Shown here: in pieces, positions 4,666 through 63,920 of the stretch
Position numbering within the stretch: the stretch's first letter is position 1
How the letters are laid out: every line of letters begins with the position of its first letter
From: Bolinopsis microptera
Taxonomy: Eukaryota > Ctenophora > Tentaculata > Lobata > Bolinopsidae
Direction: 5' to 3'
DNA length: 64,000 nt
Assembly: GCF_026151205.1 (NCBI RefSeq)
Contig: NC_087072.1
Coordinates: forward strand, 10,888,169 to 10,952,168
The notes under the pieces: model-generated
Database searches by the model: none
Seen by the model: the letters and a program-made list of their open reading frames with translations, nothing else
What the model was told of the DNA's origin: nothing
Translations under genes and position numbers: made by a program

Positions 4666-9037
<4,372 letters not shown>

Positions 9038-9806: not shown

Positions 9807-12800
9807 CTACTTACTTGTTTTCATACATTTAGGAGGGTCTGCTGTTTCTGTATCAACTACCTCATAGCTCGTTCCGTTAATACAAGTCATAGACCGTGCT
9901 CCTAAGTTGATATATCTAGGTTTACAGCTCACTCTGATCACTTCTCCTACTTCAACAGGAAACTGTGTTACTGTTACAGCGTGCTCCCAGGTTAGATCTA
10001 GTCCCGTACAACCTGAAAGTTTAATCTTAAGTATTATAAAGAGACATAACTGCTATCAAATAAGCATATAACGTCTAAAATCCAATATCTTAACGTTGTT
10101 TGAGTCTAGATTAGGTCCATTTAAGTCTATTAAGGTTATCACCTCTTCTAAATTTCAATGTGCAATTTAAATAAAAATAGAGATTTTGGAAATACTTGGG
10201 CAGCTTTCAGTGTTGCAAGTCTGAGCCTCAGTGCTGTCTCCTGCACATTGAGCTCCATCGTGAGCAGGAGCAGGATTTGTGCATGTTCTGGTTCGTGTTT
10301 GGGTTCCTGTTCCGCATTCCTTAGAACAGTCTGACCATTCAGTGAAGCTACTCCACTCGTCATCAACTGGACATTCTTGTGGGTTGCAATCTTGAGACTC
10401 AGAGTCTTGTCCCTGACAATCTTTTCCACCGTAAAGAGGAGCAGGATTTTTGCAGGTTCTGGTTCTTGACTGGGATCCTCCTCCACACGTAACAGAGCAC
10501 TCTAACCAGTCTCCATAGTTACTCCATCCGCCATTAACCGGGCAGATTTGTGGGTTGCAATCTTGAGTTTCACTGTCTTCTCCCCTACAATCTTTTCCAC
10601 CGTAAAGAGGAGCAGGATTTGTGCAGATTCTGGTTCTTGACTGGGATCCTGTTCCACACGTAACAGAGCACACTGTCCATTCTGCATACTGACTCCAACC
10701 TCCGTCAACTGGTTGAATTTGAAGAATTGATTTGAAGTTTAACTAGCTACAATCAGAGACATCAACACCAAGCACATTATGTGACACATTTGATTACCGA
10801 GGTCATGTTGAAAATTAATTTTGTTATTTTACCTGGACATGGGCTGGTACAACTTTCTTTTTCCTGCTTCCCATTAGCGCAATCAATTCTGCCGTGTTCG
10901 GGAACTGTATCTTTACAAGTTCTAGTTCGCGTCTTTGTTCCTGGTCCACACGTTACTGAGCATTCTGACCACTCAGTCCATTCTTCGTAAACCGAAAACA
11001 AGTTCTCATCGATATCTGAATGCAAAAACAGATAAATTTAATTGCAAATCAACGAGATATTCGTTTACAGAAGAAATAATATAGTTCTTAGTAAAACCTT
11101 ACCGTCAACTGGGCAACTTTTGGAAGTGTCACTGGCCCAAATAGGAATGGCTTCGCCAGAAGATATAGGGCGTCGTTTGTATAGCACAAGGTTGCCATCA
11201 TTCTGTGCTAAGAGTGTCACAACCGTACCAGCTGATGAACCGTTCCGGTTTTCTGAACTCCAAACTGCTTCCTTTCCTAGCTGTTCGTAGAGAGACATTT
11301 TGCCACTTTCCTGTATAATAATATGTAATATTATGTCTTGATTTGTGAAATGACCCAATGTTCACATAATTTTCTCTTAATTGAAACAGCATGGAAGTGT
11401 GCTACGATGCTCAACACTATGACTTAATAGTTAATAATGCTACTAATGTTCGTCTACCACAAATATTGTAATGGCCCCCAAATAAATTGATATATTTGCA
11501 CAAATATATTGGATTATAAAATACCTCTATTATAAGACCCATTTGTATGTTGTTTCCAGTATAAGTTTCCCACACCTTACTGTTATCACTATTGCAATAC
11601 AGGGCAAGGTTACCATTTGTCTCCATGACCAAGCTCATTCTTCCGCTTGTAGAGGTGATGCTTTCTCCCATTGGAAGAAGTACTCTGTTGTTTGTTTTTC
11701 TTACACACCTGTGCCCTTCACACGCTGAGGTAGGAAAGGTTACGTTTATGAAGAACAGAATATTTAGTTATAAGAACAAAATAAAGTTGATACCAAAATC
11801 ATACTTTAAAATTGAATCCGAGGCCCGAGGGTTGAATTCCGGGAGCAAAGTTAAGTTATGCTATCATACCTGACCATTTGTAACTGATACAAGGTTTATC
11901 AGAACATTCAACATGATCTCCTATACAACAGAGACTGTTCTCTTCTAAAGGTCCTCCTTTGCACTGATCTCCTAATTCATAGGATATCTCGTTATCAAAA
12001 GGTTTCTCACTGTTATTTGAACAGCATCGGTTGTGTCCAAAGAACGCAAATGGGTAGTTGGGGGGACACTCGTTACCGTTATCTGTAGATACGACAATAT
12101 AATAATGTGTTATAACTATAAGACTTGACTTGAGGTGTTGTTTAATTGCTTCAGCAACTGACCACGATTATTTACTATTTTGATTGGTCGCTGCTTAAGG
12201 TGAGTGGTAAAGGACTGTATAATTCCCACCAGAAGTCTTGTTTATTTTTTTTCGATAATCAAAATAATAATGATACGTAATTAGCGTAATTTAAAAGATT
12301 GTTTTCTAATATATTAAGTTAAATTTATATTTAGCTGTGCAATAAAACTACTGACATGGTATGATAAACTAAAACTGGCTGTTTCAACCTGAATCGGATG
12401 CTTGCTGTCATTCGAATAATGCAGGCTGTAGTATAAAATAACTGGTATCATTCGACAGTTTTAAATTCACTGCTCACCTATGATATCAGGAAGACAAAAA
12501 ACAGCTTTGGATAGCCACGGGACCGCGTTGTCAAGCCAGCCCAGATGGTTAGTGATGTTTGCTTGTGGGGAACCGTCTATTTCTATCTCAATCTGAGCGA
12601 TATTAACTTATCATGTAAAATAGCGTTCGCCAATCGCCATTCTCTAAAGTTGATACGATCGCGAATGGACCTATCGACAATTCGACAAAATAATTAGATG
12701 ACACAAAATAAGAAGAAACAATCAAAGAATATTTTCATGGGAATGGTGTTGTATGGATACCCGGATTACTATACAAGACAATAAATACCTCTTTAAAAAT

Positions 12801-13283
12801 CCAGCCGTCCCATCCGTCCATCCTTATTGAGATGCATCTGAACTCTCCAATATGTGCACTGTCCTGGAATGTCCAAGTATCTGTTTCGCCTTTCTGTCTG
12901 TCGTCACCGTAATTGTCTGCTTTTTTCTCCGCAGTGCTTCCTTTGTTTCCGAGGAAGGTGTAGTAAAAGTCTGAGCCTGACCCAGCATATTCAGTGTCGG
13001 AGGTACGTATTGTTACCTTGTACTGAGCTGAGGAATGTTACAATGTTTAAACTTACTGTTTATACCAAGTTTGCTGTTTTAACAGAATGCATTTGATGGT
13101 AGTAAAGACTGAAATAAAAGGATTGCAGAGCCCCCTGGCCCCTGTACATTGCACTACCAATAACAAATTAATAACAGAAGAAATAACCCGTTACAATTCT
13201 AAAGATAGTAAGAGGCACTCACCAGCAATGGTAGACCTTATCATTACCAGGGACACCAGTGTCACTAGAGTTATCATCACCAT
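9807..13283 (-). CDS. Gene A: secreted PLAT / bulb-lectin / TSP1 / sushi mosaic protein
   Basis: Exons 13223-13283, 12789-13027, 12478-12592, 11870-12082, 11525-11724, 11103-11310, 10833-11015, 10196-10708 and 9810-10012 join to exactly 645 codons, with the stop at 9807-9809. Order: signal peptide (MVMITLVTLVSLVMIRSTIA), a PLAT-type beta domain (YKVTIRTSD, DTWTF, IRMDGWDGW), a linker, a Cys-rich domain (NECPPNYPF, NRCC, SLCCIGDHVEC), two exons resembling bulb-type mannose lectin (NGNLALY; QNDGNLVLY), one TSP1 ([12 protein letters not shown]), three TSP1 modules of 57 residues in one exon, and a sushi-like domain (VSCKPRYINLG, TCINGT, PPKC). Most introns are phase 1. The protein should be secreted and bind glycans or matrix, inferred from domains. 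The last exon retains a CAA|GTAAGT donor, so a further exon is possible. Confidence 0.75.
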
Positions 13284-15115: not shown

Positions 15116-15193
15116 TCCGTTGTATGTTGTATGACCGGCTCCCCCTGTATCTTGAGTGCACGGCTCCTCTGTATCGTAAAAACTCTACAGGGT

Positions 15194-16200: not shown

Positions 16201-16223
16201 CCGATACGTGCGCATGATACAAT

Positions 16224-16569: not shown

Positions 16570-16626
16570 GTTCCGGTTCCGAATTGGAAGGGGTGTAATC
16601 CGATACGTGTGCATGATACAATATAG

Positions 16627-19185: not shown

Positions 19186-19239
19186 AAAGGCTCTGTTTCG
19201 TTGCGAAATAAATTGATAATTACTACTTACAAAGAACTT

Positions 19240-20214: not shown

Positions 20215-22173
20215 TTACATGCAATACTTACTCGTTTTCATACAATTAGGAGGATCTGCTGTTTCTCTGCCAACTACCTCATAGCTCGTTCCGTTAATAC
20301 AAGTCATAGACCGTGCTCCTAAGTTGATATATCTAGGTTTACATCGCACTCTGATCACTTCTACTGCTTCTACAGGAAACTGTGTAACTGTTACAGCGTA
20401 GTTCCATGCTGGATCTAGTCCCGTACAACCTGAAAGTTTAGTTTTATGTATAAAGTCACTTATATTAGATGTTATTTGATAGCAGTTATGTCACTTTATT
20501 AAAGTGATATAACTGCTATCAAATAACATCTAAAATCCAATAGTTCAACGTTGTTCGAGTCTAGATAAGGTCCATTTAAGTCTAATAAGGTTATCACCGA
20601 ATCGAGATTTCAATGTGCGATTTAAATAAAAGAAGCAATTTTGGAAATACTTGGGCACTCTTGAGTGTTGCAAGACTTAGTCTCAGTGATGTTTCCTGCA
20701 CATTCAGTTCCACCGTGAAGAGGAGCAGGCTTTGTGCAGGTTCTGTTCCGTGTTTCGGTTCCTCCTCCACATTCCTTAGAGCACACTGACCAGGTTCCAT
20801 ATTCACTCCATCCGCCATCAACTGGACAGTCTTGAGTGTTGCAAGACTTAGTGTCGGTGCTGTTTCCTGCACATTCAGCTCCACCGTGAAGAGGAGCAGG
20901 ATTTGTGCAGGTTCTGTTCCGTGTTTCGGTTCCTCCTCCACAGTGCTTGGAGCAGCTCAACCATATACCCCAACTAGTCCACGTTCCTTCAACTGAAACA
21001 AGTAATGATGAGTAAAGGTTAGCTTATATATAATTATGAACACTTCTGTATTTAGTTTTTGTTGGAACTTAGTTCAAGTTTTAGTTACATTATATGAATG
21101 CGTAATTATTATTTTTCATATTGACAAACCAGGGCAAGGTGACAGTGATCCATAGTCTTTCCATTTTCCGGTATCTGGTTATATGTGTGTTATATATATT
21201 GATTAGTGAAGGTTTAACTTGCTAGAAACAATAACTTGAACACCTGAAGTGGATTAGGTGACGCACTTATTTACTGATCTGTAATGATGAATTACAATTA
21301 TTGTCATTTCAGTTTAGAATATAAATAATTGCTTTTAAGACTGCCTCGTTAATTGTATGAATTAGAAACTGTATATCAATGATTCAAAATGTTGTTTAAC
21401 GTAACGGTATCGGTAGATAATAATTATGATAACGGTTATTTAAATATTTGTTATAATTTATCGAAAAACAGTGATAAAGTCTACTGATGACTAAAATGTC
21501 TTACATTCACGAGTCACCAGATAAACGTTTTGAGCCCAGGAACCTCCCTTGCCATCTTCGCAGTTAGTTGCTCTTCCATATTTCTTGTAGGTTTCAATTT
21601 CATGAGCATCCTCTGCAGTGAAACACTCCGTGTTGTATTGAACTGCAAAGACTGAGTAGCCCTTTTCCTTGGCGAAGTTGTAACATGTTTCTATTGGATT
21701 GGCGGAGTTGAATCTTATGCCGCCAGCTATTGCTCTTCGGGAATTGTCGTTCCAGCAGCCCAAGCTACAATTTCCTGGTTAATTGGTGTTACTTAAAATA
21801 TTCAACCCGGGGTGAATTTCAATATTTCTACAGTTTCTGAAAATACCCATTTCTTTGCCAGCACTCAATCGGCACATTAAATAAGTTATGCAAGCATTAA
21901 AACCTAGATGGAAAGCATTAAAACCTAATGTGGAAATACTTGAGCAGGTTGAGTCAATGTTATACCAAGAGTGCATTTGACGGCAGTGAAGACTAAAAAT
22001 AGAGCATTTTTGAGCCCCCTGTACATTGCATTACCATTTTTTTTTAAACAAGTATCAGAAGAAATAACCTGTTACAATTCTAAAGATAGTAAGACCTGAA
22101 AAAGGCACTCACCCGCAATGGTAGACTTTATGATTACCAGGGACACTAGTGTCACTAGAGTAATCCTCACCAT
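20215..22173 (-). CDS. Gene B: secreted WSC-like / TSP1 / sushi protein
   Basis: Exons 22113-22173, 21505-21774, 21130-21174, 20651-20992 and 20218-20429 join to exactly 310 codons; stop at 20215-20217. The signal peptide is MVRITLVTLVSLVIIKSTIA. Next is a WSC-like Cys domain ([42 protein letters not shown]). A 45-base exon follows ([13 protein letters not shown]), then two TSP1 modules in one 342-base exon ([37 protein letters not shown]), and a sushi-like last exon (CTGLDPAW, VRCKPRYINLG, NCMKT). Introns are phase 1. This is the smallest intact family member. The first TSP1 retains WxxW tryptophan spacing, a possible C-mannosylation site. Confidence 0.75.
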
Positions 22174-27155: not shown

Positions 27156-30100
27156 TTACATGTAGTACTTACTTGTTTTCATACATTTAGGAGGGTCTGC
27201 TGTTTCTGTACCAACTACCTCATAGCTCGTTCCATCAATACATGTCATAGTCTGTGCTCCTAAGTTGATATATCTAAGTTTACAGCTCACTCTGATCACT
27301 TCTCCTGCTTCTACAGGAAACTGTGTTACTGTTACAGCGTGTTCCCAGGTTGGATCTAGTCCCGTACAACCTGAAAATTTAGTTTTGTAACGTTTAAAAA
27401 TCTTTTGGTGCTTAAACTGACAAACCTGCATGTATATTTTTTTATCTACCAGCACTCCATCAGCATATTGGATACGTTATACAAGTACCAGTAATTTGTG
27501 TTTGTTACAACTAAGTTTGGGTGTGGATAAGTCTAAACATTCAGTCGAATGGGTTCAGTTATGTTAAAATATTACAAATACTTGGGCAAGAGTGAGCGCT
27601 GCAATTCCGCGATAATTCTTTATGCCCTTGACATTGAGCTCCACCGTGAGCAGAAGCAGGCTCTGTGCAGGTTCTGGTTCGTGTTTGGGATCCTGTTCCA
27701 CATTCCTTAGAACACTCTGACCACTCTCCATAATCACTCCATCCGCCATCAACAGGGTAGCTTTCAGTGTTGCAATTCTGTTCCTCAGTGTTTTCTCCTA
27801 CACATTGAGTCCCGCTGTGAGCAGGAACAGGATCTGTGCAGGTTCTGGTTCGTGTTTGGGATCCTGTTCCACATTCCTTAGAACACTCTGACCACTCTCC
27901 ATAGTCACTCCATCCGCCATTAACCGGGCAGCTTTGTGAGTTGCAATTCTGTTCCTTAGTGTTTTCTCCTACACATTCAGTTCCACCGTGAGCAGAAGCA
28001 GGCTCTGTGCAGGTTCTGGTTCTTGACTGGGATCCCGTTCCACATTCTTTAGGACACCCTGACCACTCTCCATAGTCACTCCATCCGCCATTAACCGGGC
28101 AGCTTTGTGAGTTGCAATTCTGTTCCTCAGTGTTTTCTCCTACACATTGAGTCCCGCTGTGAGCAGGAGCAGGATCTGTGCAGGTTCTGGTTCTTGACTG
28201 GGATCCTGTTCCACATTCCTTAGAACACTCTGACCACTCTCCATAGTCACTCCATCCGCCATCAATAGGACAGCTTTCAGTGTTGCAATTCTGTTCCTCA
28301 GTGTTTTCTCCTACACATTGAGTCCCGCTGTGAGCAGGAGCAGGATCTGTGCAGGTTCTGGTTCGTGTTTGGAATCCTGTTCCACATTCCTTAGAACAGT
28401 CTGACCACTCTCCATAGTCACTCCATCCGCCATCAATAGGACAGCTTTCAGTGTTGCAATTCTGTTCCTCAGTGTTTTCTCCTACACATTGAGTCCCGCT
28501 GTGAGCAGGAGCAGGATCTGTGCAGGTTCTAGTTCGTGTTTGGAATCCTGTTCCACATTTCTTAGAACACTCTGACCACTCTCCATAGTCATTCCATCCG
28601 CCATCAACAGGACAGCTTTCAGTGTTGCAATTCTGTTCCTCAGTCTTTTCTCCTACACATTCAGTTCCACCGTGAGCAGGAGCAGGATCTGTGCAGGTTC
28701 TGGTTCTTGACTGGGATCCCGTTCCACATTCCTTAGAACACTCTGACCACTCTCCATAGCTGCTCCATCCGCCATCAATAGGACAGCTTTCAGTGTTGCA
28801 ATTCTGTTCCTCAGTGTTTTCTCCTACACATTTAGTCCCGCTGTGAGCTGGAGCAGGATCTGTGCAGGTTCTGGTTCGTGTTTGGGTTCCTGTTCCACAT
28901 TCCTTAGAACACTCTGACCACTCTCCATAGCTGCTCCATCCGCCATCAATAGGACAGCTTTCAGTGTTGCAATTCTGTTCCTCAGTTTTTTCTCCTACAC
29001 ATTGAGTCCCGCTGTGAACAGGAGCAGGATCTGTGCAGGTTCTGGTTCTTGACTGGGATCCCGTTCCACATTCCTTAGAACACTCTGACCACTCTCCATA
29101 GTCACTCCATCCGCCATCAACAGGACAGCTTTCAGTGTTGCAATTCTGTTCCTCAGTCTTTTCTCCTACACATTCAGTTCCACCGTGAGCAGGAGCAGGA
29201 TTTGTGCAGGTTCTGGTTCGTGTTTGGAATCCTGTTCCACATTCCTTAGAACACTCTGACCACTCTCCATAGTCACTCCATCCGCCATCAACAGTACAGC
29301 TTTCAGTGTTGCAATTCTGTTCCTCAGTCTTTTCTCCTACACATTCAGTTCCACCGTGAGCAGAAGCAGGCTCTGTGCAGGTTCTGGTTCTTGACTGGGA
29401 TCCCGTTCCACATTCCTTAGAACAGTCTGACCACTCTCCATAGCTGCTCCATCCGCCATTAATAGGACAGCTTTCAGTGTTGCAATTCTGTTCCTCAGTG
29501 TTTTCTCCTACACATTCAGTTCCACCGTGAGCAGAAGCAGGCTCTGTGCAGGTTCTGGTTCTTGACTGGGATCCCGTTCCACATTCCTTAGAACAGTCTG
29601 ACCACTCTCCATAGCTGCTCCATCCGCCATCAACAGGACAGCTTTCAGTGTTGCAATTCTGTTCCTCAGTCTTTTCTCCTACACATTCAGTTCCACCGTG
29701 AGCAGAAGCAGGCTCTGTGCAGGTTCTGGTTCTTGACTGGGATCCTGTTCCACATTCCTTAGAACACTCTGACCACTCTCCATAGTCACTCCATCCGCCA
29801 TCAACAGGACAGCTTTCAGTGTTGCAATTCTGTTCCTCAGTCTTTTCTCCTACACATTCAGTTCCACCGTGAGCAGGAGCAGGATTTGTGCAGGTTCTGG
29901 TTCGTGTTTGGAATCCTGTTTCACATTCCTTAGAACACTCTGACCACTCTCCATAGTCACTCCATCCGCCATCAACAGGACAGCTTTCAGTGTTGCAATT
30001 CTGTTCCTCAGTGTTTTCTCCTACACATTCAGTTCCACCGTGAGCAGAAGCAGGATCTGTGCAGGTTCTGGTTCTTGACTGGGATCCTGTTCCACATTCC

Positions 30101-33032
30101 TTAGAACACTCTGACCACTCTCCATAGTCACTCCATCCGCCATCAACAGGACAGCTTTCAGTGTTGCAATTCTGTTCCTCAGTCTTTTCTCCTACACATT
30201 TAGTTCCACCGTGAGCAGAAGCAGGCTCTGTGCAGGTTCTGGTTCTTGACTGGGATCCCGTTCCACATTCCTTAGAACAGTCTGACCACTCTCCATAGCT
30301 GCTCCATCCGCCATCAATAGGACAGCTTTCAGTGTTGCAATTCTGTTCCTCAGTATTTTCTCCTACACATTGAGTCCCGCTGTGAGCAGGAGCAGGATCT
30401 GTGCAGGTTCTGGTTCGTGTTTGGGATCCTGTTCCACATTCCTTAGAACACTCTGACCACTCTCCATAGTCACTCCATCCGCCATCAATAGGACAGCTTT
30501 CAGTGTTGCAATTCTGTTCCTCAGTGTTTTCTCCTACACATTCAGTTCCACCGTGAGCAGGAACAGGATCTGTGCAGGTTCTGGTTCTTGACTGGGATCC
30601 CGTTCCACATTCCTTAGAACAGTCTGACCACTCTCCATAGCTGCTCCATCCGCCATTAATCGGGCAGCTTTCAGTGTTGCAAGACTTAGTCTCAGTGCTG
30701 TCTCCTGATTCAACTCCGCATTTAGCTTCACCGTAAAGAGGAACTGGATTTGTGCAGGATTTTCTCCTTTTCTTGTGGCCTCCTCCACAAATTGTTGAGC
30801 AGCTCGACCATTTACCCCAATTAGTCCACGTTCCTTCAACTGAAACAAGTAATGATGAGTAAAGGTTTAAAGCTTGTATATTATGAACACTTCTGTATTT
30901 TGTTTTTGTTGGAACTTAGTTCAAGTTTTAGTTACATTATATGAATGCTTAATTCTTTTTTATATATGAACAAACCCGGGCAAGGTGACAGTGATCCATA
31001 GTCTTTCCATTTTCCGGTATCTGGTTATATTTGTGTTATATATATAATATTGATTAGTAAAGGTTCAACTTGCTAGAAACAATAACTTGAACACCTGAAG
31101 TTGATTAGGTGATGCACTCGTTTATTGATCTGTAATGATGAATATACATTATTATTCAAGTAATTTCAGTTTAGCGAATTTAAATAATTGCTCTTAATAA
31201 TTGCTGTTAAAAGACTGCCTTGTTATTGTATGAATTAAAAACTATATATCAAGAGTCAAAATTTTGTTTAACGGTATCGTTAGATAATAATCATTAATCA
31301 TGATAATGGTTATTGAAATATTTGTTATAGTTTATTGAAAAACAGTAAAAATGTCTACTGATGACTAAAATGTCTTACATTCACGAGTCACCAGGTAAAC
31401 GTTTTGAGCCCAGGACCCTCCCTTGCCATTGTCACAATTAGTTTTATTTCCGTATTGATTGAAAGTTTCATGAGCATCTTCTGCTGTGAAACACTCCGTC
31501 TTGTGTTGAACTGCAAAGACTGAGTAGCCCTTTTTCTTTGCGAATTTGTAACAGTCTTCTATTGGATTGTCGTAGTTTCTTTTGCCGCCAGATATTGCTC
31601 TGGTACTTGTGTCTTTCCAGCAGCCCAAGCTACATTTACCTGGTTAATTGGTTGGAGTTTTCTTTCAGCCAGCACTTAATTAACATGTAGGGGGGGGGGG
31701 GGGTGTCACGTCCGTCTATGTCCGCTTTTATAGAAATAGAAATAGCTATGGGCTTCGAGACAATACCAGCTGAATTAAAACAGGCAGAATTTATTTAATT
31801 CTTTGATCCTCATCAAAATTGTTACGGTTTAAAAAGACGAGAGAAAAAGAACGGATTACGAAGTCAGAAGAAATAACTTCCACTACTGGGTAACAATATC
31901 AGCACAGACTAAGAAGTCACTGACTTACTGGTCTGTGTGTGGGTATTTATAGACATGCAGCCCTGGAGCGGATCAGAATGCAGCCATGCAGGATCGATAT
32001 CACGTGACCATGGGCAAGCCAATGTGTGCACTACATTGGTATCACATGATCTACAATCGGTTCTGCGCTTGACAGGGCTGTTAACAAGCAGCCACTGTCT
32101 GGAACAGTGATATTCACCGTCTAGAGCTGAGTCACTGTCTTGAGTCCAATATGACCTTGATATCCCGTAGAGGATCTGTCGCCCCCATAAAATTTGGGCA
32201 AGGGGCCAAAAAGGGCAAACTTTTTTATTTAGGTTTCTAAAAATGTTGAAAAATTGGTCTAGTATATTTACATATTTGATCCTGTGACTCGGACATGTTT
32301 CATAATTCATGCTACCCTGATCATTAAGAGCCGAAAATATTTCTTCGCACCTACCCTTCGATATACGATTTTGGACTTGAGGGTTCCTCTTTGTAATGCA
32401 ATCTCGGAAGGCAGGCCTCCCCTTCACAATACGAGCTCGGAAGCGGGAGCTCTGCCTTCAGAGGTACGTATCGAGAATCACTCAGACCGAAAATTTTGTA
32501 AGTCAAAGTTTTTCTGGAAACTACTTTTGTCCATGTTTCATGCTACCCTGATCCGATTCCGAGTTCGGTTTGAAAAAGGGGAGACCTGCTTTCCGAGATT
32601 CGTAAAGGGGATGCCTCGATAGGTTATGAATATAGGCTTTTATGAATATAAGCTCGCTTCCAATTGTCCAAATTATGTACGAAAAATTCTCATAATGTTT
32701 GCCGAGCCCGCCAATGTCCGTCAATGTCCGCTAATGTCCCAAAAAACACGTCCGTTGTCTCATAGAATCCAAAAAGGACAGGACATAGGCGGACATGTCA
32801 CCCCCCCCCCCCCCCCCCCCCATATAGGATGTGCTATAATACAAGCAATTGAAATACGATAATGTGTGTTAGTTATGTCTTGGTTTGAGTATGGATAAGG
32901 ATTAAGGTCTTGATGGAGCTATCCCCTGCTATTCAAACACATTATTAAGATAGCAAGGTACTCACCAGCTAGGGTAGACCCTATGATCACCAGGAACACT
33001 ATCGTCACTAGAGTCATCTTCATCATTGTCAT
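27156..33032 (-). CDS. Gene C: secreted WSC-like / 19x TSP1 / sushi protein
   Basis: Exons 32966-33032, 31379-31639, 30976-31020, 27582-30839 and 27159-27370 sum to exactly 1281 codons; stop at 27156-27158. Signal peptide ([17 protein letters not shown]), WSC-like domain ([33 protein letters not shown]), the 45-base linker exon, then one 3258-base exon with 19 TSP1 modules (19 x 171 + 9; the first module carries the extra three residues). Typical modules read [20 protein letters not shown] and [20 protein letters not shown]. The sushi-like last exon follows ([18 protein letters not shown]). I saw no stop or frameshift. Most modules have Glu before the second Cys (CSKECG), so the usual O-fucose acceptor is missing. 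Introns 1 and downstream DNA carry transposons, but exons are spared. Confidence 0.75.
27582..30839 (-). repeat. TSP1 module array, 19 copies of a 171-bp unit
   Basis: The block GTTCCACATTCCTTAGAACA recurs about every 171 bases on the plus strand. Six cysteines per module follow the TSP1 group-1 pattern. Units fall into sub-types ([11 protein letters not shown] versus [22 protein letters not shown] versus [11 protein letters not shown]) that alternate, suggesting growth by unequal exchange of pairs or small blocks. Confidence 0.9.
31690..32821. mobile_element. DNA transposon with poly-G tipped inverted ends in gene C intron 1
   Basis: The left end is a G run followed by TGTCACGTCCGTCTATGTCC. 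The right end is GGACATAGGCGGACATGTCA followed by a C run, an imperfect inverted repeat. The paralogous gene E intron reads straight through this point (AACATTTATGATTTAGGATG near 52,420), giving an empty site. An internal piece (32,395-32,480) is shared with the hAT-like element at 22,498-24,096. A minus-strand frame at 31,909-32,427 is not recognisable. Confidence 0.7.
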
Positions 33033-37794: not shown

Positions 37795-38507
37795 CACAAA
37801 AAAAAGATAAATGTGTGATCAGAAATAACAATGGTTGTTTGTGGGGAACCGTCTATTGCTATCTCAATCTTTTGAAAATTAAGTTATCACAAAAAATAAG
37901 AAACGATCCAAATAGTATTTTACATGGGAATGGCGTTCTAAACCCGGACTACTATAAACAGAAAATTACTATAAATAGGAAATACCCTCTTCAAAATCCA
38001 GCCGTCCGATCCGTCCAATCCGTCCATCCTTATCAAGATACATCTGAACTCTCCAATATCTGCACTGTCTGAGAATGTCCAAGTATCTGTTTCGCCTTTC
38101 TGTCTGTCGTTACTATTGTCTGCTTTTTTCTCTTCAGTACTTCCTTTGTTTCCGAGGAAGGTGTAGTAGAAGTCTGAGTCTGACCCAGCATTTGGAATGT
38201 CGGAGGTACGTATTGTTACCTTGTACTGAGCTGAGGAATTTAACGTCGTTTATACTTACTGTTTATACCAAGCTTGCTGTTTTAACAGAACGCATTTGAC
38301 GGTAGTAAAGACTAAAGTAGAACATTTGCTGAGCCCCCCCCCCCCCCCCCTGTACATTGCATTACCAATCACAAATTCATTACCAGAAGAATAAATTACA
38401 GAAGAAATAAACCGTTACAATTCTAAGGATAGTAAGAGGCACTCACCAGCAATGGTAGACCTTATGATCACCAGAGACACTATCGTCGCTAGAGTAATCC
38501 TCAACAT
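37795..38507 (-). pseudogene. Gene D: truncated PLAT-type paralogue of gene A
   Basis: Signal-peptide exon 38447-38507 (MLRITLATIVSLVIIRSTIA) joins in phase 1 to a PLAT exon 37986-38230 (YKVTIRTSDI, FYYTFLGNKGS, DTWTFSDSADIGEF), both clear copies of gene A exons 1 and 2. The next exon starts correctly (IEIAIDGSPQ) but loses similarity near 37,835 and soon meets a stop. All downstream domains are missing, and the gag-like frame and foldback element occupy the place. The PLAT exon is six bases longer than in gene A through a CCGTCC-type slippage. A poly-C run sits in intron 1 at 38,334-38,350. Confidence 0.7.
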
Positions 38508-40139: not shown

Positions 40140-41687
40140 GACCCCATGCGCATGTGTCAACCTCAGCAGTCAGCATATGCTCTAAAGTTTTTGAGATCGA
40201 AAAGGAAGAACAGAAAATTAATATGTCATGAACCACAGTTATTGCGCCATCTAAATAACAAAACAAAGCTATTAGGAACCTGGCAACCGAATACATTGTC
40301 GGACATGGTAACTACAGTTGACGTATACAAAAATCATAGCATGGCAAGTTCATTGTGATCTGAATGATTTCGTGCCAGTAAATAAATTCTTATTGAATAA
40401 TTAATTTCTCTGTTCTTTAGAGAGTATCATGCTGAAGATGAGGTAACTAACACTTGTGAAGCAGGGGTTGTTATAGTGTAATGTTAGGTGACTGGTACTG
40501 TTAAAGGACTATGTAATATATAATATTATTATATATATAGATTTACACTAAATATCCGCTATTCTAATAGATAAGGAATCAAGCTCTTTCCAAAACTGGG
40601 CGGTTTTGGTTTTGGGCCAAAAACATCTTACGTACCATCTTTATCAAACCTCTTCGTTTTCTCAAATAATATTCACAACAACTACAGACTTGCTCAACAG
40701 TACGCTAAATATAAATAACAGATACCAGTAGATGTAAAAGAGTATTCCCCTGAGAAAAAGAATGTTACAGATGCTCTGAACCGGTGAAGAGATAATGTTA
40801 GTGTATAACAGTCACTGTAGAGTATAGATGTTACTATATCAGCTGAAAGACTGCAGTTTAGCATAAGGAACGATTTGTAATTTGTGAATTGTGAAAACAT
40901 TCAGGTTTACAATAGTGTTTCTTGAGCTAGTAAATGAAACTGACATTCATGACTTAAAACTCTTATATAAGTTAATCGAACTTTATATTTGATCAGCAAT
41001 TACCAGCATAAGTTGAAATACTAAAAGTAACAGCCCCATTTAAAAAACGTATTTGTCCACACAAAATTTAACGAATATCGCCTCGTATCTTAACAATGCA
41101 ACATCATATCAAATAGCATCTTCAGAAGTTACTCGGAGAACAACATCGTCGTTGTGCCAAGGAGAAGGGATTATTTCGGCAGGGTTGAGAACTGCAGTAT
41201 TGAGGCAGATTACATTATTGGCAGAGACATTTTCCAGCTTTCTACGTAAGTGTAGGAAACACAATCCAGCCATTATTGATGTTATGAAGAAAATCGCTAC
41301 CACCCCTGATGATATCCAAACTCCTAAATTATGTTGGGCTGCGTTGCCTGAAAATAACTATAGTTTTTATCACCATGCAATCGAAAATTATGAATGTACC
41401 ACAGCTAAAGCAAAAATATCCTGATAGAAACATTTTATAATGTCATAATATTTTGTAATTAGTTAGTGCTGCCTGTATTGTTTACAATAGTATGCGCTTG
41501 TCTACGATTTAGTTGTTGGTTAAATGAATTTCTGTACAGTGTACAGTTATATTATAAATAATGAGTATAAAGTGACATAACTGATATCATATAACGTCTA
41601 GATTATGTTCATTTAGGTCTATTAAAGTTATCACCTCATCTAGATTTCAATGTGCAATTTAAATAAAAGTAGCAATTTTGGAAATAC
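40140..41687. other. Upstream region of gene D and 3' flank of gene E
   Basis: From 40,148 to 40,480 the sequence is the family upstream region (matches 19,650-20,060 and 24,260-24,670). From 40,550 to 40,830 it matches 25,090-25,360. A plus-strand open frame at 41,053-41,424, lacking an ATG, is not recognisable. From 41,440 to 41,565 it matches the 3' flank of gene C (26,884-27,020), but then jumps to the intron before the sushi exon, so the sushi exon is deleted. Confidence 0.55.
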
Positions 41688-51612: not shown

Positions 51613-52628
51613 CTGAAACAAGTAACGATGAGTAAAGGTTTAAAGCTTTTATATTATGAACACTTATGTATTTTGTTTTTGTTGGAATTTTGTTCAAGTT
51701 AAATTATATGAATGCGTAATTATTATTTTTCATTGACAAACCAGGGCAAGGTGACAGTGATCCATAGTCTTTCCATTTTCCGGTATCTATTTATATTTGT
51801 GTTATATACTGTATAATATTGATTAGTAAAGGTTCAACTTGCTAGAAACAATAACTTGAACACCTGAAGTGGATTAGGTGATACAAAATAAATAATTGCT
51901 TTTAATAATTGCTGTTAATAACACTGTCGATTGCTGTTAAAAGACTGCCTCGTTATTGTATGAATTAAAAACTATATCAATGATTCAAAGTGTTGTTTAA
52001 CGGCATCGTTAGATTATAATCATGATAACGATTATCTAACTGTTTGTTATAATTCATTGAAAAACAGTGATAAAGTCTGTAAGTCTACTGATGACTGAAA
52101 TATCTTACATTCACGAGTCACCAGGTAAACGTTTAGAGCCCAGGAACCTCCCCTTCCATCTTCGCAGTTAGTTGCTCTTCCATATTTCTTGTAGGTTTCA
52201 TGAGCATCTTCGGCTGTAAAACACTCCTTGTCGTTTTGAATTGCGAACACTGAATAGCCCACTTCCTTGGCGAATTTGTAACATTTTTCTATTGGATTGT
52301 CGTAGTTTCTTTTGCCGCCAGCTATTGCTCTGGTTTTTTTGTCTTTCCAGCAGCCCAAGTTACAATTTCCTGGTTAATTGGTTAGAGTTTTTTTGTTGTT
52401 GCTAGAATTTAATTAACATTTATGATTTAGGATGTGCTATAATACGAGCAATTGATATACGATAATGTGTGTTTGTTACGTCTTGGTTTGAGTATGGATA
52501 AGGTCTTGATGGAGCTATCCCCTGCTATTCAAACACATTATTATGATAGCAAGGTACTCACCAGCTAGGGTAGGCCCTATGATCACCAGGACCACTATCG
52601 TCACTAGAGTCATCTTCATCATTGTCAT
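41688..52628 (-). pseudogene. Gene E: WSC-like / 58x TSP1 gene with frameshift and stops, no sushi exon
   Basis: Exons 52562-52628 (signal peptide, MTLVTIVVLVIIGPTLA), 52109-52369 (WSC-like, [20 protein letters not shown]), 51742-51786 (45-base linker) and one exon of 9925 bases, 41688-51612. That equals 58 x 171 + 7. The extra 7 bases lie near 49,535 (TAATAAC inside the GGWTNYEDW segment) and create a stop at 49,538-49,540, after 12 complete modules (815 codons from the start). In the frame that follows, stops occur at 46,267-46,269, 44,599-44,601 and 43,873-43,875. Modules mostly read [20 protein letters not shown], with Thr available for O-fucose. Without the lesions this would be a secreted protein of about 3400 residues. 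It may still make the 12-module form. Repeat collapse or an assembly error could mimic some of this. Confidence 0.7.
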
Positions 52629-55206: not shown

Positions 55207-57642
55207 TTACATGCAATACTTACTTGTTTTCATACATTTAGGAGGGTCTGCTGTTTCTCTACCAACTACTTCATAGCTCGTTCCGTTAATACATGTCATA
55301 GACCGTGTTCCTAAGTTGTTATATCTAGGTTTACAGCTCACTCTGATCACTTCTGCTGCTTCAACAGGAAACTGTGTAACTGTTACAGCGTGTTCCCAGG
55401 TTGAATCTAGTCCCGTACAACCTGAATGAGTGATGAAAGTTTAAAACTCTCTTTTTGTTTACAATTAAAAACAATGTACTATGTTTGTTACAATTCAGTT
55501 TGAGTCTGGACAAGTTTATATTTTCAGTCTGATGGGGTTATCCCCCTTATGTAGTAGACTTCAACGTGAAATTTAAAATTAAGTTAGAATTTTACAAATA
55601 CTTGGGCAAGAGTGAGTATTGCAATTCCGCGATTCTCTGTCATCTCCGTCACATTGAGTCCCGCTGTGAGCAGGAGCAGGATTTGTGCAGGTTCTGGTTC
55701 GTGTTTGGGTTCCTGGTCCACATTCTGTAGAGCACAATGACCAGTCTCCATAGCCACTCCATCCGCCATTAACCGGGCAGTCTTTAGTTTTGCATGACTT
55801 AGTCTCAATGCTTTCTCCCTGACAATCTGCTCCACCGTGAGCAGGAGCAAGATTCGCGCAGGTTATATTGTTTAGTGTTTGGGTTCCTGGTCCACATTCC
55901 TTAGAGCACTCTGACCACTCTCCATAGCTGCTCCATCCGCCTATAATCGAACTGTTTTTTACTATTTTTCTTTTAGTCAATAATTGTTAGGGTATACTGT
56001 TCTCACGTGTAAAATGGCCAGCAACATGACAGTTCGGAATATGAACGAATATAATGCTTGATACTTAAAAGTATAGTAAGAGTTTTGATGGGTCCAGTAA
56101 TGGAGATTAACTAATTTCCTTATACAATTAGAACCACCAGACTTCAGCTTCATTACAAAGGTATATAAGTATATGCTACATATTTACTTAGTGAGATAGT
56201 GGAAGATAGATAGGTGCATTTTCTAAATATTACATCTTTTCATATAATACAGAATACCTTTTGTTCCTTCTTATGTCCTTAATATTCATAAAGTTTAATT
56301 AATGAAAGTACCTGTTTGATAGCATATTTCGCTAGGACACTTGATGTAGTTGTCACCAACACAGCACTTACTGTCTCTCCGAAGCACACTACCATCACAT
56401 TGTGTACCATCAGGAGCATTGTCCTTCTCCATGTTAGATTGACAGCAGTATTGCCCGTTGTTGTAAACGTAGGGGTGGAAAGGAGGGCATGTATCTGGAA
56501 ATTATGAAATTTTATAATTCCCACATTAAATTTTGAAGCCGCAAACTTTTTAAGTTCGTACACTAATTGTGCCCCACAGTTCTGAGAGCATACCTTACCA
56601 GACTTTATTTGAACGGTCATTAATTGGACGCTGGAGGCCCCAGTGTTAATTTAATGTCCGTTCAAATAAAATCAAAGTCCGTTGAATTTTTTCCCCAAAA
56701 GTATTCCACTACGAAGGACTTGACTACTTTTTAATTTCGGTCAATTTCAATTTCTATACTATTATATTACTATTATATATATTATAGATCGGAACTTACT
56801 TTTATCAGGTCTACAGAATTGTAATACTAATTCTGCTTCATCATCAATCCAAATTTTCTCTCCATTTACAAAGTCAAATTCTTTTCTTTCGTCTACTTGA
56901 ACACTGATCTGTAAAGTGTTGCAGTTTAATTTGTATTATGATAACTTATTATAGCACGTGTTTTTTCGTAAGTTTTAGGAGCAAAACCTTATGTTATGAC
57001 TCTCCAACGCCATCTAAAGTACAACATTATTAAAATTCCGCTCATACAACAATCCATAAAAACAGAGTTTTTCGATGTCAGAGCGATGTCATGAATGAAA
57101 TTATGAATAAATACAGACAAGTCCAATGTAACAAAATCTAGGTTCAGTGGAATTTGGTCGAGCCAGTCTAATTTAAAATGGCATAAGTAAGAAAGAAGAG
57201 TTTACTGTATGAATGAGCCACCCATCAGTTCCATCCATTCTGATGGAAATACACTGGAATTCCCCGATGTCAGCATTGTCACTAAAGGTCCAAATATCTG
57301 TGTCGCCAGAGTTTCTATCATTCCCCGGGTTATCAGTCACGTGCTCTCCTGTATGTCCTGTTGTTCCGATGATTTTGTAGAAGAATTTCGAATTAGTTCC
57401 AGAGTTGGATTCAGTTGAGGTCAAAATCGTCACCTTGTATTTAGCTGGAGAAACTTGTTTCAAACTTATTATTTTATTTGTTAGCACCGATTTGTCCCGA
57501 AAGCATTATATTACCATCTATCATTCTATCAAAGTATCAAAGTATCAACAATGACAATCTGTAGAAACAGTTTGTAGCAGAGTTACTCACCCGCCAGTAG
57601 TGGTGAAATGATCGCTAAAAGCAAAACAGTAGATGTTATCAT
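55207..57642 (-). CDS. Gene F: secreted PLAT / Cys-rich / 2x TSP1 / sushi protein
   Basis: Exons 57591-57642, 57206-57444, 56800-56908, 56312-56494, 55602-55940 and 55210-55421 sum to exactly 378 codons; stop at 55207-55209. Signal peptide MITSTVLLLAIISPLLA, PLAT-like domain (YKVTILTSTES, DTDIWTFSDNADIGEFQC), a linker (ISVQVDERKEFDF), a Cys-rich domain matching that of gene A (TCPPFHPYVYNNGQYCC, SKCCVGDNYIKCP), two TSP1 modules ([40 protein letters not shown]) and the sushi-like last exon. For the TSP1 exon the acceptor is TTATAG|GCGG; using the AG 11 bases earlier would bring in a stop. It is gene A without the lectin exons. The first TSP1 has lost one basic stretch (LNNITC). Confidence 0.75.
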
Positions 57643-60291: not shown

Positions 60292-61384
60292 CGTCAGGAC
60301 TTGGAAAACTAATACATTAATATGTCGTTGATAACAAAGTGAACCTTGAAACTTTGTGTGTGATTTCTCTCACAAAGCATTTTGATGATGGACGTATAGT
60401 TATAAGTGTAGTATACCGCATCAAACGACGGTTAGAGAAAGGTTATACTCTGTGTTCATACATTAGTGTATTTATTGTATTTTGACCGATGATCTCACAA
60501 TTGCAAAAAACCGGGTAAATTCTTGCACCTAAAAGTAAATGATTGATTTGGCGTTGATTTTATATATTTTTCATTTCCAACTTTACCAAAGCTGACTGTT
60601 CACTGTAGGAACCAGGCAATAAACTCACGTTTTGCAAGATTACATTTGAATTTTATATAATTTTATTTAGGATAATAATATTATAGTGAATACATCACTC
60701 TGTTTGTAACATATCAGTACATTGTGCAAGAAATAAGGACGGATTTAAAATTTGGAAGCATGTAGGTCGTAGGACACACAAGGGTAGATATTAGAAGAGT
60801 TAAAACTACGCTTTGGGGCAGTAAAATATAGAGAACTGTTTAGATAGGTTTGTGGTACACGTGATGGTAGGACTGGTTATCAGAGTGGACAAGTTAGCAG
60901 GATAATTAGATCACCATTATATAAATAATCATGGCGAGTAGTAAAACTCCAATTCAACGACTCGGCACTCCTATCAAACTGGAAAACCCAGCCCAATCGC
61001 GAACAAAATGTGGCTTTTACCACTCTACGTGTTGAACAGATCTTTGTGCCCGAGCCTTTCGTCCGTTACATAGTGCATAACATGAATTCTGGGAATTTGA
61101 GATGAAGGATAGCAGGAAATGAAGGTGGTAGTACCTGGTGTTTATAAAGTTCTTAGCTGAAAGGGTAACTATAAAAAGTATCGCTCTTAGTTTCCTTTCA
61201 TCTCTGATCAAATCTGTTTCAATCTTATGCAGAACTGGGCAACGCGTTTCAAATAAATGATTTTCCAACAATTAATTCTTTCGTGAAACTTTAAGATCAA
61301 TACAAAACAGTGCCTTAATCTGCCTTGCATTGACCTCAAATCAAGGAACATGACGTTATTGTTTATAAAATAATACCCTATATT
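60292..61384. other. Stretch between the BPI-like gene and gene G
   Basis: AT-rich DNA with no supported exon. It should hold the BPI-like promoter and the 3' flank of gene G. No sushi exon of the kind seen after the other TSP1 arrays could be found here. Confidence 0.5.
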
Positions 61385-63920
61385 TTAGCTATAAAGTTTC
61401 TTACTTGATTTGAGAAATGTTGTATTATCATCTGACATGTTGCATTCTTGTGAGTTGCAATCTTGAGTCTCAGTGCTGTCTCCTGCACATTCAGCTCCAC
61501 CGTGAGCAGGAGAAGGCTTTGTGCAGGTTCTGGTTCTTGACTGGGATCCTCCTCCACATCTTTTAGAACACTCTGACCACTCTCCATAGTCACTCCATCC
61601 GCCATCAATAGGGCAGCTTTGTGAGTTGCAATTCTGTTCCTCAGTGTTTTCTCCTACACATTCAGATCCACCGTGAGCAGAAGCAGGCTTTGTGCAGGTT
61701 CTGGTTCGTGTCTGCCTTCCTGTTCCACAAGTCTTGGAACACTCTAACCATTCACTGAAGTTACTCCACCCGCCATCAACTGGACATTCTTGTGGGTTGC
61801 AATCTTGAGATTCACTGTCTTCTCCCTGACAATCTTCTCCACCGTTAGCGGGAGAAGGATTTGTGCATGTTCTGGTTCGTGTCTGGGATCCTCCTCCACA
61901 AGTCTTGGAACACTCTAACCATTCACTGAAGTTACTCCACCCGCCATCAACTGGACATTCTTGTGAGTTGCAATCTTGAGATTCACTGTCTTCTCCCTGA
62001 CAATCTTCTCCACCGTTAGCGGGAGAAGGATTTGTGCATGTTTTGGTTCGTGTCTGGGATCCTCCTCCACAAGTCTTGGAACACTCTAACCATTCACTGA
62101 AGTTACTCCACCCGCCATCAACTGGACATTCTTGTGGGTTGCAATCTTGAGATTCACTGTCTTCTCCCTGACAATCTTCTCCACCGTTAGCGGGAGAAGG
62201 ATTTGTGCATGTTCTGGTTCGTGTCTGGGATCCTCCTCCACAAGTCTCGGAACACTCTAACCATTCACTGAAGTTACTCCATCCGCCATCAACTGGACAT
62301 TCTTGTGGGTTGCAATCTTGAGATTCACTGTCTTCTCCCTGACAATCTTCTCCACCGTTAGCGGGAGAAGGATTTGTGCATGTTCTGGTCCGTGTCTGGG
62401 ATCCTCCTCCACAAGTCTTGGAACACTCTAACCATTCACTGAAGTTACTCCACCCGCCATCAACTGGACATTCTTGTGGGTTGCAATCTTGAGATTCACT
62501 GTCTTCTCCCTGACAATCTTTTCCACCGTTAGCGGGAGAAGGATTTGTGCATGTTTTGGTTCGTGTCTGGGATCCTCCTCCACAAGTCTTGGAACACTCT
62601 AACCATTCACTGAAGTTACTCCACCCGCCAGGGTATACTGTTTTCACGTGTAGATTGCCTAGTATAGCAACATGACAGTTCGGAATATATAATTTCGTGT
62701 TTTCCCCTTCTTATGTCCTTTATATTCTTAAAGTTCAAACATGTGTTGTTAATATTCGTTTGGATCTTTATTCTTTATTCGAGCGAAAGGGTCGACGTGA
62801 TCAAGACAATTATAAGACATAATATAGGACATTCACTCAATTTTAATACAATGCTCCTTCCCTGTGACAATTAAAACCCCAATGCAAAGGGACTTTGCAT
62901 TAACACTAACACCATATTTAAAATAGCTGCAGTAAATTTATAAAATTTTACGGCCTGTAGCTGTGTTTAGTTTCCACCAAAGCTTTTTAAACCAAACCTA
63001 TTGTTAATTGTTCTAACCTTTGATAGAATTATCAACAACTGCTAGTCCCAATTCCTTGTCATATGCGAAAGATTGGAACACTTGTGTCATGATCATCGTT
63101 GTAGCTCGAAGACAGTTTCCGTCATTGGAGTTGAAATCCTTGTTGTAGAGAACTCTCATTTTGTTTAAGATGGTTAGTCTCTCCTTTGTCTTTTCAATCC
63201 TGGAATTTTTCGCGGCTGAATATTTATATTTCAAGCCCAATTATAAAGACAAACTGAAAAATGCGGTCCTTTTATGAAAATATGGTACAAAGACTAACTC
63301 TAAGCTGCTCTCAAAAAACGAACCTCAAGATTATGTTTTCCTGCTCGCACTCCATATCCTTCTCAATTAGAAAATATGTTACGGCCCCACCCCACTGATC
63401 TTTTGCTCCAGCTCCTTTACAAAAAACATTTCCATTCTTCTGATGCTTAAGCTCGACGTGAGAATTCTGAACTCTTCCTCCATACTGATTATCTTTATTC
63501 GCTCCATACATGTAGAGTTTGAAGTGCAAATTCTCAACATCCTCACAGGGGAATCTCACTAAAAATACTTCCACTGAACGACCAGTGAAGTTGGTAGTGA
63601 CATCGACCTCACTGTTGGCAGAGAATGATTTCCAGTTCAATTTATTGTTATCTGCTGCTGCTGCTGGATAATATAATATAGTATGATAGTATCTTTGCAT
63701 GAACAATGAATAAAAAGACAATGATGTAGTCAAGCTCACTGAATGAATCATTTCCATGTTCAAAACTTTCGAAAGATATTCATGGCAATCTTGTTAACTT
63801 ACGATTAGCGAATGTTAACGGCGTGATGGTAAACAGGAATGTGGCTACCATAACTCCAGCTGTCCACTTGTTGGATGAGCAGGGTGTAAAGCAGCCCCCA
63901 CTCATATTATCAGCTAACAT
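61385..63920 (-). CDS. Gene G: unknown domain plus 7x TSP1, possibly damaged
   Basis: Exon 63803-63920 encodes a leader with an internal hydrophobic stretch ([18 protein letters not shown]), either signal peptide or anchor. Exon 63324-63663 encodes an unrecognised beta-rich domain ([30 protein letters not shown]). An exon ending at 63018 ([31 protein letters not shown]) follows; from its most likely acceptor (exon from 63,253) an in-frame TAA appears after three codons, so either splicing differs or the gene is broken. The TSP1 exon from 62,637 has seven modules ([37 protein letters not shown]) and ends [18 protein letters not shown], with the stop at 61385-61387. A CAA|GTAAGA donor in phase 1 lies just before that stop. 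Intron sequence before the TSP1 exon is shared with gene F. Confidence 0.6.
61440..62637 (-). repeat. TSP1 module array, 7 copies
   Basis: Modules 1-5 are nearly identical (only KTCG/ETCG and TRTRTC/TRTKTC changes), module 6 switches to the [18 protein letters not shown] type and module 7 to the [13 protein letters not shown] type. Recent expansion at the N-terminal side is the simplest explanation. Confidence 0.9.

What the first reader, a model, noticed from the sequence alone, without database searches (positions are those of the whole stretch)
9807..63920. Uncharacterised tandem family of secreted TSP1 mosaic proteins with 2 to 58 repeats per gene
Seven same-strand paralogues (A-G) combine a phase-1 leader exon with an N-terminal PLAT or WSC-like domain, an optional bulb-lectin pair, a single-exon TSP1 array of variable length, and a sushi-like last exon. 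The shared exon phases and leaders are seen directly. Family identities come from known TSP1, PLAT, WSC, B-lectin and sushi signatures. The idea that this is a variable adhesion, allorecognition or defence locus is inference, strengthened by extreme copy-number differences and a BPI-like neighbour.
Basis: partly seen in the sequence, partly recalled or inferred. Interest (0 to 1): 0.8.

Follow-up and report, generated by a model that had tools for sequence, protein, structure and literature searches.

The report
Comb-jelly cluster of mosaic recognition-protein genes
A comb-jelly genome holds a row of related genes built by swapping ready-made protein modules, probably for binding sugars, microbes or prey at the animal's surface, but the record-breaking 58-repeat member is a broken gene whose repeats kept multiplying after it stopped coding a full protein.

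Summary
The module cluster is real. Minus strand 9.8-63.9 kb holds six TSP1 arrays (A 4, B 2, C 19, E 58, F 2, G 7 units) and one TSP1-less relic (D). Hand-built models of A, B, C and F splice into stop-free proteins. Heads are PLAT (A, D, F) or WSC (B, C, E). A's 'lectin pair' is one B-lectin split over two exons. The sushi exon (A, B, C, F only) is a true CCP module, ends in a donor-like GTAAGT, and may not be last.

The headline fails. The 58-unit array is not open: one 7-bp insertion and three in-frame stops, one stop copied by a 14-unit block duplication (99.3% identical). Its units show no sign of purifying selection (pairwise dN/dS 0.96; C 0.46). The largest intact array has 19 units.

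The genome (264.65 Mb, 13 chromosome-sized contigs, C1 26.2 Mb) fits the ctenophore Bolinopsis microptera. The modules recur across it: TSP1 and sushi at least 150 matches each, WSC 57, PLAT 38.

Most likely this is a birth-and-death cluster of secreted adhesion/recognition proteins made by phase-1 exon shuffling. Immune or colloblast use is untested; allorecognition has no support.

The parts
13223..13283 (-). Gene A leader exon (signal-peptide-like)
12478..13027 (-). Gene A PLAT domain, two exons (13027-12789, 12592-12478)
   Evidence: Pfam PLAT 31.9 bits
11870..12082 (-). Gene A Cys-rich module
   Evidence: no Pfam match in the A model
11103..11724 (-). Gene A B-lectin domain, two exons (11724-11525, 11310-11103)
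10196..11015 (-). Gene A TSP1 units, exons with 1 and 3 (11015-10833, 10708-10196)
9815..10012 (-). Gene A sushi/CCP exon
22113..22173 (-). Gene B leader exon
21505..21774 (-). Gene B WSC exon
   Evidence: Pfam WSC 30.2 bits
20651..20992 (-). Gene B TSP1 x2 exon
20232..20429 (-). Gene B sushi/CCP exon
32966..33032 (-). Gene C leader exon
31379..31639 (-). Gene C WSC exon
   Evidence: 76% identical to E WSC
27582..30839 (-). Gene C TSP1 x19, single open exon
27173..27370 (-). Gene C sushi/CCP exon
38447..38507 (-). Relic D leader exon
37797..38230 (-). Relic D PLAT: first exon 38230-37986, second exon cut short by a stop (37868-37797)
52562..52628 (-). Gene E leader exon
52109..52369 (-). Gene E WSC exon
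   Evidence: Pfam WSC 30.7 bits
41688..51612 (-). Gene E array of 58 TSP1 units; frame broken by a 7-bp insertion near 49540 and stops beginning at 46269, 44601, 43875
41112..41347 (-). TM/tail exon downstream of E, ownership doubtful
57591..57642 (-). Gene F leader exon
56800..57444 (-). Gene F PLAT domain, two exons (57444-57206, 56908-56800)
   Evidence: Pfam PLAT 35.8 bits
56312..56494 (-). Gene F Cys-rich module
55602..55940 (-). Gene F TSP1 x2 exon
55224..55421 (-). Gene F sushi/CCP exon
63803..63905 (-). Gene G candidate leader exon, different from A-F
   Evidence: read by eye
63314..63649 (-). Gene G N-terminal open segment, no Pfam match at cut-off
61388..62710 (-). Gene G open frame with TSP1 x7 (units 62626-61430)
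   Evidence: Pfam TSP_1 292 bits

Best explanation
This is a tandem gene cluster of a comb jelly, most likely Bolinopsis microptera, encoding secreted multi-domain adhesion or recognition proteins. Shown here by sequence: leader exons; N-terminal PLAT or WSC modules, with a B-lectin in A; TSP1 arrays; CCP/sushi modules; phase-1 borders between modules; segmental duplication and module swapping between neighbours (B has an A/D-type leader intron on a C/E-type body); and breakage of D and E. Inferred: the N-terminal head binds glycan or lipid on microbes, particles, prey or mucus; the TSP1 array is a rod-like, multivalent stalk of the properdin or rhamnospondin sort; the sushi module docks to another protein. 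Unequal exchange between 171-bp units changes stalk length freely. In E the array went on expanding after the frame was lost, so 58 repeats record unconstrained repeat growth, not a 58-domain protein; from its own start E could encode at most WSC plus 12 TSP1 units. Between uses I lean slightly to surface defence (about 0.35) over prey-capture glue (about 0.3).
For: Stop-free models A, B, C, F and Pfam domains. Sushi: an 18-sequence profile matches CR1, factor H and CR2 chains at E 7e-32 to 1e-26; 15 of 18 members match Pfam Sushi alone at E up to 0.1. Duplicated blocks 27631-31689 = 48406-52422 (81%) and 32822-34940 = 52425-54525 (89%). B chimera: first 150 bp of the leader intron 0.88 identical to D, 0.87 to A, 0.75 to C and 0.74 to E. 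E: insertion and stops; the stop beginning at 46269 recurs 2394 bp on, at 43875, inside a 14-unit duplicate that differs at 16 of 2394 sites; pairwise dN/dS 0.96 (55 units) against 0.46 (C, 17 units) and 0.53 (G, 7 units). Arrays are alike within themselves: nearest neighbour in the same array for 58 of 58 E, 17 of 19 C and 5 of 7 G units. Elsewhere in the genome: WSC+TSP1x3 (L072), TSP1x5+WSC (L074), PLAT..sushi without TSP1 (L071); B-lectin and TSP1 alternating in the same open frames on C5 near 15.05 Mb. Best solved relatives of the G array by sequence: properdin (1.2e-45) and thrombospondin-1 (2.1e-41).
Against: No transcript data, so every splice join is a prediction, chosen by hand. The 3' ends are unresolved: the sushi exon ends at a donor-like site and no shared following exon could be proven. 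Function is inferred from domain type only. Tree-based selection estimates have wide, overlapping intervals: C 0.61 (0.32-1.24), G 0.58 (0.36-0.92), E 1.26 (0.81-2.14); bootstrap P(C>=E) 0.0475. Pairwise dN/dS in the intact but tiny arrays A (0.84) and B (0.95) is also near 1, so a high ratio alone does not mark a dead gene. The species is named from assembly size, chromosome number and largest chromosome, not from a sequence match, and the published scaffold number (346) differs from 232 here.
Confidence: 0.6

Rival explanations
1. Tentacle glue: the proteins are made in colloblasts or tentacle glands and help to stick to prey; head modules bind prey surfaces and TSP1/sushi parts build the glue.
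For: [quoted passage not shown]
Against: No expression data for these genes. Sushi and TSP1 have at least 150 matches each in this genome, so domain enrichment says little about any one cluster. The same paper found no BLAST support for homology of colloblast candidates with known adhesives.
Confidence: 0.3
2. The cluster is mostly decaying: D and E are broken and the others are on the way, with no present function.
For: D and E are broken; G lacks a recognised head and sushi; pairwise dN/dS near 1 in A and B arrays.
Against: A, B, C, F splice without stops, C over 1261 codons; WSC dN/dS 0.46-0.47 in 3 of 3 pairs and sushi 0.35-0.66 in 6 of 6 pairs.
Confidence: 0.12
3. E is a working giant protein: the breaks are assembly errors or are spliced or read over.
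For: Leader and WSC exon of E are intact; the 12 units before the insertion are open; the array comes from highly similar repeats that are hard to assemble.
Against: Three stops are substitutions in units otherwise 98-100% like their neighbours, one stands in both copies of a 14-unit duplicate, no sign of purifying selection, sushi exon missing.
Confidence: 0.06
4. Allorecognition locus: variable proteins that tell self from other individuals.
For: A tandem, swapped, copy-number-variable cluster is what some allorecognition loci look like (recalled).
Against: No membrane anchor shown in A, B, C, F; the modules are genome-wide rather than special to the locus; copy-number extreme lies in a broken gene; no polymorphism data. 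One paper search for ctenophore+allorecognition+fusion gave 11 papers, seen as a listing only, none on such a locus by title.
Confidence: 0.04

Closest known systems
Rhamnospondin family (Hydractinia Rsp, Hydra Tsrp2-like)
   Same: Predicted secreted proteins with a lectin domain and several TSP1 repeats in a small gene family (as described in PMC4820225 section 11)
   Different: Lectin there is rhamnose-binding with eight TSRs; here heads are PLAT or WSC, one B-lectin, 2-19 intact TSRs and a CCP module; ctenophore, not cnidarian
Properdin and the expanded anthozoan TSR-only proteins
   Same: Tandem TSP1 as main body; properdin is the best solved relative of the G array by sequence (1.2e-45)
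   Different: Not TSR-only. One unit each of A, B, C and E keeps WxxW and none of F or G; O-fucose-type motif in E 42/58, G 6/7, A 3/4 units but C 0/19, B 0/2, F 0/2, whereas the cnidarian TSRs described keep WXXWXXW (PMC5446238 section 5 part 1)
Ctenophore immune-receptor mosaics (SRCR or CTLD with CCP, TSP1, Ig)
   Same: Same phylum; unusual combinations that include CCP and TSP1 reported in Mnemiopsis (PMC11797021 passages)
   Different: WSC, PLAT and B-lectin are not mentioned in the passages I saw; no SRCR or CTLD in A, B, F by Pfam
Mega-TSP and sushi-TSP (thrombospondin superfamily)
   Same: Large extracellular proteins of early animals; sushi-TSP has CCP repeats (PMC6526912 passages)
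   Different: Defined by the thrombospondin C-terminal region, not found by Pfam in A, B or F; that paper reports only mega-TSP in ctenophores

Membership tests
TSP1-repeat (TSR) superfamily protein | TSP1 domains above Pfam cut-off, six cysteines | tested here: met
   Pfam TSP_1 in A, B, F models, the G frame and a two-unit piece of E (C not scanned); six cysteines in 54/58 E, 17/19 C, 7/7 G, 4/4 A, 2/2 B, 1/2 F units
Rhamnospondin family | rhamnose-binding lectin domain joined to TSRs | tested here: not met
   Pfam on A, B, F finds PLAT, WSC, B_lectin and TSP1 models only, at E up to 0.5
Properdin-like TSR-only proteins | signal peptide and TSP1 repeats only | tested here: not met
   A, B, C, F carry PLAT or WSC and sushi modules
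Thrombospondin superfamily (mega-TSP, sushi-TSP) | thrombospondin C-terminal region | tested here: not met
   no such Pfam match in A, B, F; C not scanned whole
CCP/sushi module | four-Cys CCP profile similarity | tested here: met
   A copy alone is below the Pfam cut-off (18.6 of 20.7 bits); the 18-member profile hits complement CCP chains
PLAT domain | Pfam PLAT above cut-off | tested here: met
   A 31.9, F 35.8 bits, cut-off 23
WSC domain | Pfam WSC above cut-off | tested here: met
   E exon 30.7 bits, B 30.2 bits, cut-off 27.8
Bulb-type (B_lectin) domain | Pfam B_lectin above cut-off | tested here: inconclusive
   joined exons alone 34.7 bits, whole A protein 28.2, cut-off 32.4
Allorecognition locus | polymorphism that predicts fusion or rejection | not testable with these tools
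   one genome only; no relatives held
Allorecognition locus | membrane-anchored receptors (recalled for Hydractinia) | tested here: inconclusive
   scan for phase-1 exons with a TM stretch: none after A, F, G; 3 rows after B and 3 after C that I judged unconvincing; one near broken E of doubtful ownership

The most novel reading that the evidence does not exclude
The cluster is a diversifying recognition system of ctenophores: heads (WSC, PLAT, B-lectin) are swapped between genes, and in some gene pairs their exons differ more than the intron beside them, while stalk length is tuned by unequal exchange of 171-bp units and two stalk classes differ in the O-fucose-type site (C, B and F without it; most E, G and A units with it). 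It would be a soluble lectin-TSP1-CCP system in a lineage that may be sister to all other animals.
Probability: 0.13. Interest if true: 0.75.

Novelty: new variant of a known kind. Interest (0 to 1): 0.42.

Why it matters
[quoted passage not shown] The cluster gives concrete genes to test in colloblasts, mucus or immunity. It also holds a lesson for repeat-protein hunting: the most spectacular repeat number belongs to a broken copy, in which a nonsense codon was itself multiplied, so array length must be checked against frame and selection before it is read as adaptive.

Tried and rejected
Rejected: a functional 58-repeat protein. E as a membrane-anchored receptor: two of the TM exon's closest relatives, on C7, lie downstream of a Cys-rich receptor-like open frame and have longer tails, so ownership is doubtful. 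'Sushi-like' as a chance match: rejected by the profile search. Cnidarian or sponge origin, my first guess: dropped after the assembly size and contig lengths (published values in PMC11797021) and 18 innexin matches of 35 scored candidates. A Rel-homology search found 0 matches, but the tool warns that nothing rang in its controls either, so I do not count it.

Led nowhere: Rfam and tRNA scans of the window, 0 hits. Scans of viral contigs and prokaryote genome contigs with the G array, 0 relatives. Structure models of the Cys-rich exon (mean pLDDT 48.0) and the G N-terminal segment (53.6) were too poor for a fold search, so none was run. A phase-1 exon finder of my own kept only 4 candidates and missed known exons. 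A terminal exon after sushi is hinted at by a segment shared by C, its duplicate, F and A, but A lacks the AG acceptor and the short B stretch compared does not show it. Paper searches: WSC domain + thrombospondin + PLAT domain, 0 papers; thrombospondin type 1 / WSC domain / lectin / domain architecture, at least 3 of 4 terms, 37 papers, 8 listed, none by title this family; only openly licensed papers are held.

Rows dropped before counts: first and last units of C and E and the unit E12 in selection tests, and codons with stops in the pairwise counts; A01 in the nearest-neighbour count. Only the best 150 candidates were scored for TSP1 (of 737) and sushi (of 474). In the exon-against-intron comparison, alignment to a shuffled intron already gives 0.72-0.74 identity over the aligned columns, so those figures are relative.
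Full report
WHERE IT IS. The window is G000:C1:10888169-10952168 in an assembly of 264,652,675 bases and 232 contigs. C1 is 26,206,493 bases; the ten of C1-C13 whose length I saw are 16.3-26.2 Mb, and matches on C6, C10 and C12 reach 19.4, 17.1 and 15.0 Mb. Later-numbered contigs matched only at small coordinates. A published table gives Bolinopsis microptera 265 Mb, 13 chromosomes, largest 26.2 Mb, GC 38.5%, but 346 scaffolds (PMC11797021, passages). B. microptera is a lobate ctenophore. Innexin matches (18) fit. The species name is an inference.

THE OBSERVATION. The TSP1 units found lie on the minus strand. Counts: A 4 (1+3), B 2, C 19, E 58, F 2, G 7, together 92. A TSP1 core motif occurs 85 times in six frames, and 0 times in each of 20 Markov-1 controls. 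A local search with window peptides places WSC exons in B, C, E; PLAT in A, D, F; sushi in A, B, C, F plus a fragment at 25.7 kb.

GENE MODELS. Joining exons at consensus splice sites by hand gives A (643 aa), B (290), C (1261) and F (373) without stops. PLAT is in two exons in A and F. The two 'bulb-lectin' exons of A join into one B_lectin match (34.7 bits alone; 28.2 in the whole protein; cut-off 32.4). Of 19 joins, 16 are phase 1, all at module borders; the 3 phase-0 joins are inside domains. Because frames had to fit, part of this regularity is built in. Leaders of A-E are homologous and F has the same kind of donor. G has its own leader, N-terminal segments without a Pfam match at cut-off, and no sushi match.

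THE 58-REPEAT ARRAY IS BROKEN. Units 1-12 read in one frame; a 7-bp insertion near 49,540 adds stops and shifts the frame; later units read in another frame, with stops beginning at 46269, 44601 and 43875. Unit-against-unit comparison shows block duplications at offsets of 9, 14 and 7 units. The 14-unit pair E24-E37/E38-E51 differs at 16 of 2394 sites; units E32 and E46 (numbered from GW) are identical and both carry the stop. The simplest reading is that the frame was lost before this duplication. Pairwise dN/dS among units is 0.96 in E, 0.46 in C, 0.53 in G, but also 0.84 in A and 0.95 in B, which are intact and tiny. Tree-based estimates agree in direction and are imprecise: E 1.26 (0.81-2.14), C 0.61 (0.32-1.24), G 0.58 (0.36-0.92), bootstrap P(C>=E) 0.0475. 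E also lacks the sushi exon; its sequence jumps from just after the array to what follows sushi in C. The largest intact array is C with 19 units.

HOW THE CLUSTER GREW. Blocks 27631-31689 and 48406-52422 (81%), and 32822-34940 and 52425-54525 (89%), are duplicates. B is a chimera: the start of its leader intron resembles D and A (0.88, 0.87) rather than C or E (0.75, 0.74), while its WSC-TSP1 intron resembles C and E (0.93, 0.91). Arrays are most alike within themselves. The WSC exon differs more than the following intron in B-C (34/259 against 34/501, p 0.005) and C-E (40/261 against 42/475, p 0.01) but not in B-E (26/258 against 44/472, p 0.79); the first 200 bp of the TSP1 exon do so in B-C (38/191, p < 0.0001) and B-E (35/198, p 0.004) but not in C-E (21/191, p 0.38). 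Synonymous divergence in the WSC exon is high too (dS 0.23-0.30), so exon conversion explains this as well as selection does. The F-A PLAT exon is saturated at synonymous sites while their sushi exons differ at dS 0.105, so the 3' module is much younger or homogenised.

MODULES ACROSS THE GENOME. TSP_1: 150 matches of 150 scored, 737 candidates. Sushi: 150 of 150 scored, 474 candidates; only A, B, C, F above 80% identity, the rest 50% or less. WSC 57 of 67, PLAT 38 of 97, the Cys-rich module 38 of 64, B_lectin 12 of 38. PLAT followed within 2 kb by the Cys-rich module on the same strand recurs at 8 places outside the window (positions; 4 of them seen in loci). WSC+TSP1x3, TSP1x5+WSC, and three PLAT..sushi pairs without TSP1 (partial sushi matches) occur elsewhere (L072, L074, L071). 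On C5 near 15.05-15.07 Mb, B_lectin and TSP1 matches alternate in the same open frames. The 7.8 kb right of the window has no module match (L073). In most distant sushi copies looked at, a GTGAGT-type donor follows just after the last cysteine; the window copies end in GTAAGT. Hence sushi is probably an internal, symmetric module, and the protein ends are unresolved.

SITES IN THE REPEATS. WxxW occurs in one unit each of A, B, C and E and in none of F and G; other units mostly read WxxYxxWxxC or the like. The O-fucose-type motif Cx2-3[S/T]CxxG is in E 42/58, G 6/7, A 3/4, and in C 0/19, B 0/2, F 0/2. The meaning of both motifs is recalled knowledge. C thus differs in kind, not only in length.

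FUNCTION. Nothing here measures function. By domain type the proteins look like soluble adhesion or recognition proteins with a head, a stalk and a docking module. Two readings stay open. One is defence, by analogy with rhamnospondin (PMC4820225, section 11) and the expanded TSR proteins of anthozoans (PMC5446238, section 5 part 1 and section 15). The other is colloblast or tentacle secretion: colloblast candidates in Mnemiopsis are over-represented for sushi and lectin categories and include TSP1 (PMC6278862, section 7 and passages). Allorecognition is not supported.

PAPERS SEEN. PMC5446238: abstract and outline, section 5 part 1, section 15. PMC4820225: passages and section 11. PMC6278862: passages and section 7. 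PMC11797021, PMC10232365 and PMC6526912: passages only. Other papers: search listings only.

VERDICT. A real, orderly module-shuffling gene cluster in a ctenophore; a new variant of the known TSR-mosaic kind.

Noticed in passing
59317-60369 (-): Single open frame of 350 aa with a signal-like start and a BPI/LBP N-terminal domain (46.4 bits); the C-terminal part is unusual.
   Followed up: partly
36458-37411 (-): Gag-like open frame with a CCHC knuckle match below cut-off, in the remains of gene D.
   Followed up: partly
35201-35577 and 35740-36119: Inverted repeat of about 380 bp, 97.6% identical, between D and C.
   Followed up: no
15647-18681: Minus-strand frame with a reverse-transcriptase-like YVDD motif (recalled) near a 684-aa plus-strand frame: probably retroelement remains.
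   Followed up: no
39066-39474 and 8246-8444: Minisatellites: 23-bp units in a 145-bp higher-order unit, and a 44-bp unit.
   Followed up: no
G000:C5:15048011-15066958: B_lectin and TSP1 matches alternate in the same open frames: a second lectin-TSP1 repeat family.
   Followed up: partly
L071 (G000:C5:10407500-10414400): Three tandem PLAT..sushi pairs without TSP1 match.
   Followed up: partly
L069, L070 (G000:C7): TM/tail exons related to window 41112-41347, downstream of a Cys-rich receptor-like frame; both tails carry NDVVL and Y-rich motifs.
   Followed up: partly
25418-25733 and 26890-27208: 98.4% identical duplicate carrying the end of a sushi exon downstream of gene C.
   Followed up: no
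54230-54391 and 34679-34834 (-): Conserved open segment upstream of the leaders of E and C, in the duplicated block; no Pfam match at cut-off; could be the 3' exon of the gene before.
   Followed up: partly
about 760-3000 (-): Open segments that look like an M28 / glutamate-carboxypeptidase-type gene (recalled, not searched).
   Followed up: no
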